From Gigantopelta aegis (lineage: Eukaryota; Mollusca; Gastropoda; Neomphalida; Peltospiridae): a DNA stretch of 64,000 nt. Position numbers and translations under genes: made by a program. The first letter of the stretch is position 1; each line of letters opens with the position of its first letter. The notes under the pieces are model-generated. The model did no database searches, was not told where the DNA came from, and saw only the letters and a program-made list of their open reading frames with translations. This document shows, piece after piece, positions 42,601 to 45,600 of this stretch. The stretch covers positions 34,506,413-34,570,412 of the forward strand of contig NC_054701.1 of the NCBI RefSeq assembly GCF_016097555.1, read 5' to 3'.

Positions 42601-45600
42601 TGTGGGGCGGGAGTATTACATGAAGTGGCAGCAGGGGGTTTTCTCTCTCTCGTCGGTGTGCTCTTTAACATACATGTATATGACACCATTTGTGTGTGGG
42701 GCGGGAGTATTACATGAAGTGGCAGCAGGGGGTTTTCTCTCTCGTCGGTGTGCTCTTTAACATACATGTATATGACACCATTTGTGTGTGGGGCGGGAGT
42801 ATTACATGAAGTGGCAGCAGGGGGTTTTCTCTCTCGTCGGTGTGCTCTTTAACATACATGTATATGACACCATTTGTGTGTGGGGCGGGAGTATTACATG
42901 AAGTGGCAGCAGGGGGTTTTCTCTCTCGTCGGTGTGCTCTTTAACATACATGTATATGACACCATTTGTGTATGGGGCGGGACGTAGCCCAGTGGTAATG
43001 CGCTTGCTTGATCTGCCTGATCCCTGTCGGTGGGCCTATTGGGCTATTTCTTGTTCCAGCCAGTGCTCTACAACTAATGTAACAAAGGCCATGGTATGTA
43101 CTGTCCTGTCTGTGAGATGGTGCATATAAAAGATCCCTTGCTGCTAATCGAAAAGAGTAGCCCATGAAGTGGCGACAGCAGGTTTCCTCTCTTAATATCT
43201 GTGTGGTCCTTAACTATATGTCCAATGCCATATAACCATAAATAAAATGTGTTGAGTGCAACGTTAAACAGAACATTTCCTTCCTTCCATCTATTTACAT
43301 ATAACTATAAATAAAATGTGTTGTTAAATAAAACATTTCTTTCTTTGTTACAGATCTATAAATAAAAATGTGTTGTTAAATAAAACATTTCTTTCTTTGT
43401 AACAGATCTATAAATAAAAATGTGTTGTTAAATAAAACATTTCTTTCTTTGTAACAGATCTATAAATAAAAATGTGTTGTTAAATAAAACATTTCTTTCT
43501 TTGTAACAGATCTATAAATAAAAATGTGTTGTTAAATAAAACATTTCTTTCTTTGTAACAGATCTATAAATAAAAATGTGTTGTTAAATAAAACATTTCT
43601 TTCTTTGTAACAGATCTATAAATAAAAATGTGTTGTTAAATAAAACATTTCTTTCTTTGTAACAGATCTATAAATAAAAATGTGTTGTTAAATAAAACAT
43701 TTCTTTCTTTGTTACAGATCTATAAATAAAAATGTGTTGTTAAATAAAACATTTCTTTCTTTGTTACAGATCTATAAATAAAAATGTGTTGTTAAATAAA
43801 ACATTTCTTTCTTTGTTACAGATCTATAAATAAAAATGTGTTGTTAAATAAAACATTTCTTTCTTTGTTACAGATCTATAAATAAAAATGTGTTGTTAAA
43901 TAAAACATTTCTTTCTTTGTTACAGATCTATAAATAAAAATGTGTTGTTAAATAAAACATTTCTTTCTTTGTTACAGATCTATAAAAGTTGAATGTTATG
44001 ACTGGAATAGTGATGGCAGGTAAGTGTTGGCCAAAATGAACAGTGTTTTTTAGTTTTTTTCTCACATTGCCATATCTATAACAAATGGGATATGACAACT
44101 GTATGGCTGGTTATATAAAGTATTTTTTGTAATAAAGTAAACGTATATATTTTCATATAAAATTTTATTGGTCCATTTAATGGTTTAACTGTGAATAGTT
44201 TGCCTGGTGGGTAGAATGCTTGCTGAGGTGTCATAGGTTACAGAATCAATGGCCATCTTTGGACACCTTCTGGGTTTTTTTTCTTCATCCCAACCAGCTG
44301 TCCAAGATTGATACATCAAAGGCTGTGGTATGTACTATCTGTCTACGGAAAAATATGGATAGAAGAAAATATGGATAAAACATGTTCTTTATTTATTAAA
44401 TAAATATTGTTTTGCTTTTTGTTTTATTTTTTGAAAAGGGAGAAAAAGTACAAAGCAAAATGTTCTAACCATTTTTTATTATAGCCATGATCTGATTGGA
44501 GAATTCACGACAAACCTGCGGACTCTGTCCAAAGGCCCGGGTTCAGAAAATCAGTATGAGGTATGTTAGTCCTGGAATGTTTTCATTCAATTTCTCTGTC
44601 TTGTGATGTTAATAGCACTCTTCAAAAAAGAGGGGTGGGATTTAGTTAGTCGATTGAGTGCTTGCTTTAAGTGCTTGCATGGCAGGATCGAACCACCTCG
44701 ATGGATCCATTCAACTGATTGAGGTTTTTCTCGTTCCAACCAGTGCACCACAACTGGTCAAAGACTGTGGTATGTGCTTTCCTGTCTGTGGGAAAGTGCA
44801 TACAAGAGAACCCTTGCTGCATTAACAAAATGAAGTGGGTTTCCTCTGATGTGTAAGAATTATCAAATGTTTGACATGCGATAGCCGATGATTAATGAAT
44901 CGATTTGCTCTAGTGGTATCATTACTAAAACGATCGATCCCAGTTGGTGGACCCACTGGACTATTTCTCGTTCCAGCCAGTGGACCACGACTTGTATATC
45001 GAAGGCTGTGGTATGAGCTACTAATGGGGGAAATGTAGTGGATTTCCTCTCTAAGACTATATATGGCTAGCTCAGGGAATTATTGAATGTTTAATGACCC
45101 CCAGCACAAAAATAGAGATTGGCTATTGGGTGTCAAACAAGGTTGAGGCTAGCTCTGGGTGAGCAAAAGGTTTTGTCAAAGAATTTATGAAACTTCAAAA
45201 ATTGCAGAAAACTAACCCAGTTATTTTCTAACAAAATGTCTGTTATTACATGAAATTTTTTCACCAAATTAAAATAAACTTCCCCATCTGCTTTTAAAAT
45301 TTGTAATTGGCGAATCTGGCGAGTGCCAGAGCTAACTCTGGAATATCATAATACATTGTGGGTTGGTGGCTGGAACATGGACCTTTATTATAATTTTATT
45401 TTCTGGTGTATTTATTATATATATTGTCATACCGGTATGTGTCAGTTTTGAAACCTGTCAAACATATTCTCATGTAGTGTCAATCCACAATTGACCTGAC
45501 TGGCTACTGTTCTCAGCATGCATGTATTGACCCTCCTGTGCTGGGCTAGCCCTGGCGTTCGCCAAATTCGCCAGTTGCAAATTTGAAAAACAACTGGCAA

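What the first reader, a model, noticed from the sequence alone, without database searches (positions are those of the whole stretch)
43303..44019. Thirteen tandem 3' splice sites in front of one 42-nt copine exon
The acceptor of exon 10 and the first nine bases of the exon are part of a 52-bp minisatellite. Seen directly: CAG acceptors every 52 bp from 43351 to 43975, each with a TTTCTTTCTTTG tract and each followed by ATCTATAAA. Only the last keeps frame. Using the one before adds 17 open codons, then the real exon reads ATC TAT AAA AGT TGA, a stop; using any earlier one meets TAA in the next unit. So array length may tune the share of productive copine mRNA. I know of no described case of a coding-exon acceptor amplified this way.
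Basis: partly seen in the sequence, partly recalled or inferred. Interest (0 to 1): 0.92.

Follow-up and report, generated by a model that had tools for sequence, protein, structure and literature searches.

The report
Copine splice acceptor repeated thirteen times
In what looks like a snail gene, a short stretch that tells the cell where an exon begins is repeated thirteen times in a row, apparently built from the tail of an old mobile element; similar repeats are known from amphioxus, where splicing seemed undisturbed, so this is a striking new example rather than a new kind of thing.

Summary
Thirteen CAG acceptors lie 52 bp apart (43351-43975), each with the same pyrimidine tract and followed by ATCTATAAA, before a 42-nt exon (43978-44019) of an intact 20-exon copine-8-like gene. 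Only the last keeps the frame; the other 12 give early stops. In a rough score from the gene's own acceptors, six upstream sites tie with the last and six are weaker but still mid-range.

A 7-bp match (CTATAAA) between tail and exon start is a plausible duplication point. Each unit also carries two AATAAA motifs, so premature polyadenylation is possible.

The claim that no such case is described does not hold. Tandem repeats of intron-exon boundaries, 'mirages', are reported in amphioxus genes, one repeating an intron 3' end plus exon start; RT-PCR there suggested undisturbed splicing. I therefore think the array is mostly tolerated baggage, not a tuner; no RNA data were reachable. Verdict: a real, unusually regular member of a known kind, with an origin clue that the amphioxus authors lacked.

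The parts
27455..54472 (+). copine-8-like gene, 20 coding exons, 610 codons (hand model)
   Evidence: no internal stop; 18 GT-AG introns and one GC-AG after exon 8; best listed relative Littorina saxatilis copine-8-like, 74% identity over 88%; Pfam Copine 2.6e-91 and C2 in two stretches. Exon 6 was picked among five script candidates by resemblance to relatives
41758..41862 (+). exon 9, ends ...GACAG|GTAAGG, donor for the intron that holds the array
42427..42982 (+). a second minisatellite in the same intron, 92 bp x 6, overlapping the body of the same interspersed repeat
42975..43286 (+). interspersed SINE-like repeat, long copy just upstream of the array
   Evidence: the stretch 42975-43300 matches 21 other places in the window (16 on +, 5 on -), not counting the intron's two arrays and 42298-42491
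43295..43355 (+). second, diverged 3' tail of the same repeat = left flank and unit 1 of the array (51-bp unit; keeps the element's AAATAAAATG)
   Evidence: alignment A1
43305..43986 (+). 52-bp minisatellite, 13 units, running through the acceptor into the first 9 bases of exon 10
43351..43353 (+). CAG acceptor 1 (TTACAG type)
43403..43665 (+). CAG acceptors 2-7 (TAACAG type, lower score): CAG ends 43405, 43457, 43509, 43561, 43613, 43665
43715..43925 (+). CAG acceptors 8-12 (TTACAG type, same score as the last): CAG ends 43717, 43769, 43821, 43873, 43925
43975..43977 (+). CAG acceptor 13, the only one that keeps the frame
43978..44019 (+). exon 10, 42 nt, encodes [13 protein letters not shown] in the second C2 domain; donor GCAG|GTAAGT
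   Evidence: the 169 distinct relatives listed all align over these 13 residues
43310..43986 (+). 26 AATAAA motifs, two per unit, with GT-rich TGTGTTGTT in each unit

Best explanation
This is a 'mirage': a minisatellite that has swallowed an intron-exon boundary. A SINE-like element left its 3' tail directly upstream of the exon 10 acceptor, so that the tail's TTTCTTTCTTT became the polypyrimidine tract (supported by sequence homology). The tail contains CTATAAATAAAATG and exon 10 begins ATCTATAAAAG; slippage or unequal exchange at the shared CTATAAA duplicated the stretch 'tail + TTACAG + AT' (inferred from the junctions). Once two copies existed, further exchange expanded it to 13 almost identical units (three unit types in ordered blocks). 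In the mRNA the last acceptor must be used for a full-length protein (shown by frame). I infer that a substantial share of transcripts uses it, and that use of the upstream acceptors gives transcripts with early stops that are removed by nonsense-mediated decay. The net effect is most likely a tolerated constant cost, not a regulated switch.
For: Array and units. The unit matches tails of other copies elsewhere in the window: 94% over 33 bp at 46476 (7.5e-8), 80% over 51 bp at 93-143 (2.7e-8), 91% over 33 bp at 34751 (1.7e-6) (aligned). Unit 1 and its left flank (ACATATAACTATAAATAAAATG) still look like the element, while units 2-13 begin with the hybrid junction ACAGATCTATAAATAAAAATG. The exon's own start looks like old coding sequence, not element-derived: at the I and K positions 150 and 158 of 169 listed relatives have the same residue. 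Intact gene and frame of all 13 acceptors. Acceptor scores. Published mirages repeat intron-exon boundaries and were reported not to disturb splicing.
Against: No RNA evidence was reachable, so which acceptor is used is unknown. The scanning rule summarised in PMC1431707 (passages) predicts use of the first AG after the chosen branch point, and a model substrate there was read as splicing mainly to the upstream AG with the products degraded, so the cost may be large. The 7-bp match is short and was picked after the fact; units 2-13 carry one extra A that simple exchange does not explain. A tRNA origin of the element was not confirmed, so 'SINE' rests on size, a shared 3' end and recall. My acceptor score is weak: two ordinary AGs in the same intron (42100 and 43060) reach 7.2 and 6.9, close to the 8.0 of units 2-7.
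Confidence: 0.62

Rival explanations
1. Length-dependent splicing rheostat: the 13 acceptors compete, 12 give decay targets, so the number of units sets the share of productive copine mRNA, and alleles differ in dose.
For: Six of the 12 upstream sites score the same as the last one, above 17 of the gene's 18 other acceptors; the other six score above at least 9 of 18. All 12 lead to a stop 811-1401 nt before the last exon junction. Upstream choices give exons of 94-666 nt, the smaller of which are nearer the usual exon size than 42 nt (recalled). The units are nearly identical, which suggests recent turnover and possibly length polymorphism.
Against: In amphioxus mirages splicing was reported as undisturbed. 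In ABCA7 single-unit retention was not affected by array length. The gene has other very short exons (32, 29, 40 nt), so a 42-nt exon is not unusual for it. Only one allele was seen.
Confidence: 0.15
2. Premature polyadenylation block: each unit is a poly(A) module (AATAAA, CA about 20 nt later, then GT-rich TGTGTTGTT), so the array ends a share of transcripts inside the intron and makes a shortened copine without the vWA domain.
For: 26 AATAAA in 682 bp against 130 on the whole 64-kb + strand; order and spacing. AATAAA plus a pol III terminator at the 3' end is a feature of many mammalian SINEs whose RNAs can be polyadenylated (PMC8466645, abstract).
Against: Motif matches only; the region is AT-rich and no 3'-end data were reachable. 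The cited SINEs are mammalian.
Confidence: 0.13
3. Assembly artefact: the true locus has one or a few units.
For: Not testable here; the amphioxus authors noted that one mirage appeared wrongly assembled in the draft genome (Additional file 4 legend).
Against: The units fall into ordered blocks (1 TTACAG unit, 6 TAACAG, 6 TTACAG), and 675 bp is short enough for a single long read; how this assembly was made is not known to me.
Confidence: 0.06

Closest known systems
'Mirage' minisatellites of amphioxus (Adh3, globins BflGb6 and BflGb9, troponin C; similar repeats in PGBD5)
   Same: Minisatellite-like tandem repeats spanning an intron-exon boundary, many units with splice signals; [quoted passage not shown] PMC3902484, passage).
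   Different: Here a probable gastropod copine gene, 13 units rather than 6 and 3 as in the two BflGb6 haplotypes, units at most two changes apart against 81-100% identity in BflGb6, unit 52 bp, and a recognisable mobile-element tail as source; the amphioxus authors called the mechanism unclear. Length and somatic instability, reported for mirages, was not tested here.
Human ABCA7 intron 18 VNTR
   Same: The repeat begins with the canonical splice donor of exon 18, so the splice site is amplified; retention of one 25-bp unit gives an out-of-frame transcript (PMC5954066, passages).
   Different: Donor side, 25-bp unit, about 12 to 427 units; no mobile-element source mentioned in the passages seen.
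Human IFI6 (6-16) minisatellite with multiple splice donors
   Same: Repeat units act as alternative splice donors giving three mRNAs (PMC4526556, passages, citing Turri 1995; the original could not be read).
   Different: Donor side, and the alternative forms are said to encode isoforms.

Membership tests
mirage (minisatellite at an intron-exon boundary) | tandem repeat whose unit spans an intron-exon boundary | tested here: met
   the array ends 9 bases inside exon 10 of the hand model
mirage (minisatellite at an intron-exon boundary) | units carry splice signals | tested here: met
   13 of 13 units have CAG with a pyrimidine tract
mirage (minisatellite at an intron-exon boundary) | length differs between haplotypes or somatically | not testable with these tools
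   one sequence only; the genome search gave no answer
mirage (minisatellite at an intron-exon boundary) | regular mRNA still made | not testable with these tools
   no RNA data; the gene is intact
SINE-derived minisatellite | unit homologous to an interspersed repeat | tested here: met
SINE-derived minisatellite | the interspersed repeat is a tRNA/pol III-derived SINE | tested here: inconclusive
   no tRNA found by ARAGORN in the window; Rfam on 38900-46600 gave only two matches, both below their gathering scores and neither a tRNA; the label is recalled from size, shared tail and box-like head
copine | two C2 domains and a copine vWA domain | tested here: met
   PF00168 in two stretches, PF07002 at 2.6e-91

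The most novel reading that the evidence does not exclude
A mobile-element tail brought a ready-made package of polypyrimidine tract and poly(A) signals to an exon boundary and, by capturing the acceptor, turned it into a length-variable dose control for copine: each added unit adds one decay-producing acceptor and two AATAAA motifs. Such SINE-tail mirages could recur in mollusc genes rich in this element.
Probability: 0.12. Interest if true: 0.78.

Novelty: new member of a known kind. Interest (0 to 1): 0.5.

Why it matters
It offers a natural test of how the spliceosome chooses among 13 nearly identical acceptors in series, a question otherwise put with artificial duplications (recalled). 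It suggests a concrete route, an element tail plus a short match, by which boundary minisatellites can arise, which the amphioxus authors left open. It also shows that the kind is not confined to amphioxus, if the gastropod assignment, made from the best protein relative, is right.

Tried and rejected
Own-genome search (other arrays, other copies of the element, copine paralogues): asked nine times, never answered. Pseudogene: rejected, gene intact. Exon 10 as optional exon: disfavoured, the 169 distinct relatives listed (the best 120 of each; 7739 and 4896 passed the E-value limits) all keep the 13 residues aligned and none has an insert at the exon 9/10 junction; 5 have a one-residue insert at the exon 10/11 junction. 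These are the closest relatives of a query that holds the exon, and mostly predicted proteins, so the test is one-sided. Exon start derived from the element: disfavoured, the codons encode residues conserved in relatives. A transcript of this species among the proteins: none in the listed best 120; top identity is 74% over 88%. Known RNA family in 38900-46600: two matches, both below gathering score. Branch point: only imperfect matches (TTAAA with A 27 nt before the exon; GTTAC at 56 and 4 nt). Acceptor scoring used a small matrix from 18 sites of one gene; the 18 were scored left-out, the array with the full matrix; ordinary AGs in the intron reached 7.2 and 6.9.

Full report
OBSERVATION. 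The window (64,000 bases, 35% GC, no N) holds a 52-bp minisatellite at 43305-43986 (13.1 copies, 99% matches). CAGATCTATAAA occurs 13 times, CAG starts 43351 to 43975, always 52 bp apart. The array has 13 units of three types: unit 1 (51 bp, one A fewer), units 2-7 (GTAACAG) and units 8-13 (GTTACAG). The ordered blocks suggest stepwise copying and recent homogenisation.

THE GENE. I built a 20-exon model by matching three mollusc copines (P0001, P0002, P0032) to the window and reading splice signals. Exon 6 was chosen among five script candidates by its likeness to relatives. All 20 exons join in frame to 610 codons without a stop; 18 introns are GT-AG and one, after exon 8, is GC-AG. The product has a Copine domain (2.6e-91) and C2 in two stretches. 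The best listed relative is a Littorina saxatilis copine-8-like protein, 74% over 88% of the query, so the organism is probably a gastropod; no near-identical protein was listed. Exon 10 (43978-44019) encodes [13 protein letters not shown] in the second C2 domain; the 169 distinct proteins listed by the two searches (best 120 of each) all align over these 13 residues.

FRAME. Exon 9 ends in AG, giving AG|A TCT ATA AAA. I spliced exon 9 to each of the 13 acceptors in a script. Acceptor 13 gives the full protein. The other 12 of 12 give a stop after 234 (six), 239 (five) or 240 (one) residues, 811-1401 nt before the last exon junction, so they are expected targets of nonsense-mediated decay (established knowledge; decay in this animal not tested). 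The truncated products would lack the end of the second C2 domain (best stretch 156-258) and the vWA domain. Skipping exon 10 keeps the frame and loses 14 codons.

SITE STRENGTH. A matrix from the gene's other 18 acceptors gives 12.5 for acceptors 1 and 8-13 and 8.0 for acceptors 2-7; the 18 others, left out one at a time, score -1.8 to 15.0. 12.5 beats 17 of 18 and 8.0 beats at least 9 of 18. Among 3186 AGs on the + strand 19 score 12.5 or more (seven of them in the array) and 69 score 8.0 or more (13 in the array); the matrix's own training sites are among these. As a caution, two ordinary AGs in the same intron reach 7.2 and 6.9. Before the CAG of the two units examined (one of each type) lies a 50-nt AG-free stretch, and by the unit sequences the same holds from unit 2 on. 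Thus the sequence just before the acceptor gives the spliceosome no reason to prefer the last site over acceptors 1 and 8-12; only position, and what follows the exon start, differs.

ORIGIN. The 326 bp at 42975-43300 match 21 other places in the window, 16 on the + and 5 on the - strand (E from 5.5e-82 to 0.023), besides matches inside the intron's own two arrays and at 42298-42491. It is thus an interspersed element; I call it SINE-like because of size and shared 3' end, a label not confirmed by tRNA or Rfam searches. The unit is homologous to its 3' tail, minus about nine bases. Unit 1 and its left flank keep the element's sequence, while later units begin with the acceptor-exon junction. 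The exon begins ATCTATAAAAG and the tail reads CTATAAATAAAATG. The simplest history, which I infer, is exchange at CTATAAA between the exon start on one copy and the tail on the other, giving the first duplication, then ordinary minisatellite expansion. One extra A in units 2-13 is left unexplained. The exon start encodes residues conserved in other animals, so I think the match was there by chance and the exon was not made by the element.

Every unit has two AATAAA, 26 in the array against 130 on the whole + strand, and a GT-rich stretch. In order, AATAAA, CA and TGTGTTGTT fit a poly(A) site. Many mammalian SINEs carry AATAAA and a pol III terminator at the 3' end, and their RNAs can be polyadenylated (PMC8466645, abstract). 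Premature polyadenylation is therefore a rival to alternative acceptors as a cost of the array.

COMPARISON WITH WHAT IS KNOWN. Ten literature searches were answered, in an open-licence library only. They turned up direct precedents. [quoted passage not shown] The authors say the mechanism is unclear and that Adh3 data and globin RT-PCR suggest no interference with regular splicing, while noting that cryptic use is possible. PMC3902484 (passage seen) says the same of Adh and troponin C and adds similar repeats in PGBD5. On the donor side there are human ABCA7 (PMC5954066, passages) and IFI6 (PMC4526556, passages). The original Adh3 and IFI6 papers could not be read. So the kind is known. In what I saw I found neither a mollusc case nor one traced to an element's tail; a search for SINE, mollus-, tRNA-derived and minisatellite together gave no paper. 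Such absence proves little.

HOW IT MOST LIKELY WORKS. Shown: intact gene, 13 very similar acceptors, one productive. Inferred: enough transcripts use the last acceptor, the rest decay, and the animal tolerates the loss. The rule of searching from the branch point to the first AG (PMC1431707, passages) means that the choice is made when the branch point is chosen; only that of the last unit leads to the productive AG, unless an AG lies so near the branch point that it is bypassed. Blind choice among 13 equal units would give about 8% productive mRNA, a plain calculation and not a measurement. Mirage precedents argue that cells do better than that. Whether array length matters is open; the ABCA7 data speak against it for single-unit retention, though exon skipping there did grow with length.

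VERDICT. Observation confirmed; interpretation partly supported; the statement that no such case is described does not hold. Interest 0.5: a striking natural construct with a readable origin, in a class already named.

Noticed in passing
window 42427-42982: A second minisatellite (92 bp x 6, 98% matches) in the same intron, partly homologous to the body of the same SINE-like element; the element may be prone to seed minisatellites.
   Followed up: partly
window 38899-38930 and 39669-39697: Two very small exons (32 and 29 nt) in the copine gene model, needed for an unbroken frame.
   Followed up: yes
window 40591-40600: Exon 8 ends in a GC donor (GAAG|GCAAGG), so this intron is of the GC-AG type in the model.
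   Followed up: partly
window 54295-54472: The copine C-terminus is itself a coding tandem repeat (24-bp units, [12 protein letters not shown]), followed by a 21-bp minisatellite (54468-54759).
   Followed up: no
window 12463-13689: Another minisatellite of 52-bp period but different sequence, 23.7 copies at 95% matches.
   Followed up: no
window 45610-46205 and 63429-63805: Further arrays of 83-bp (7.2 copies) and 93-bp (4.1 copies) units at 98% matches.
   Followed up: no
window 56576-60034, minus strand: Long open frames that look like a non-LTR retrotransposon reverse transcriptase (recognised by eye, not searched).
   Followed up: no
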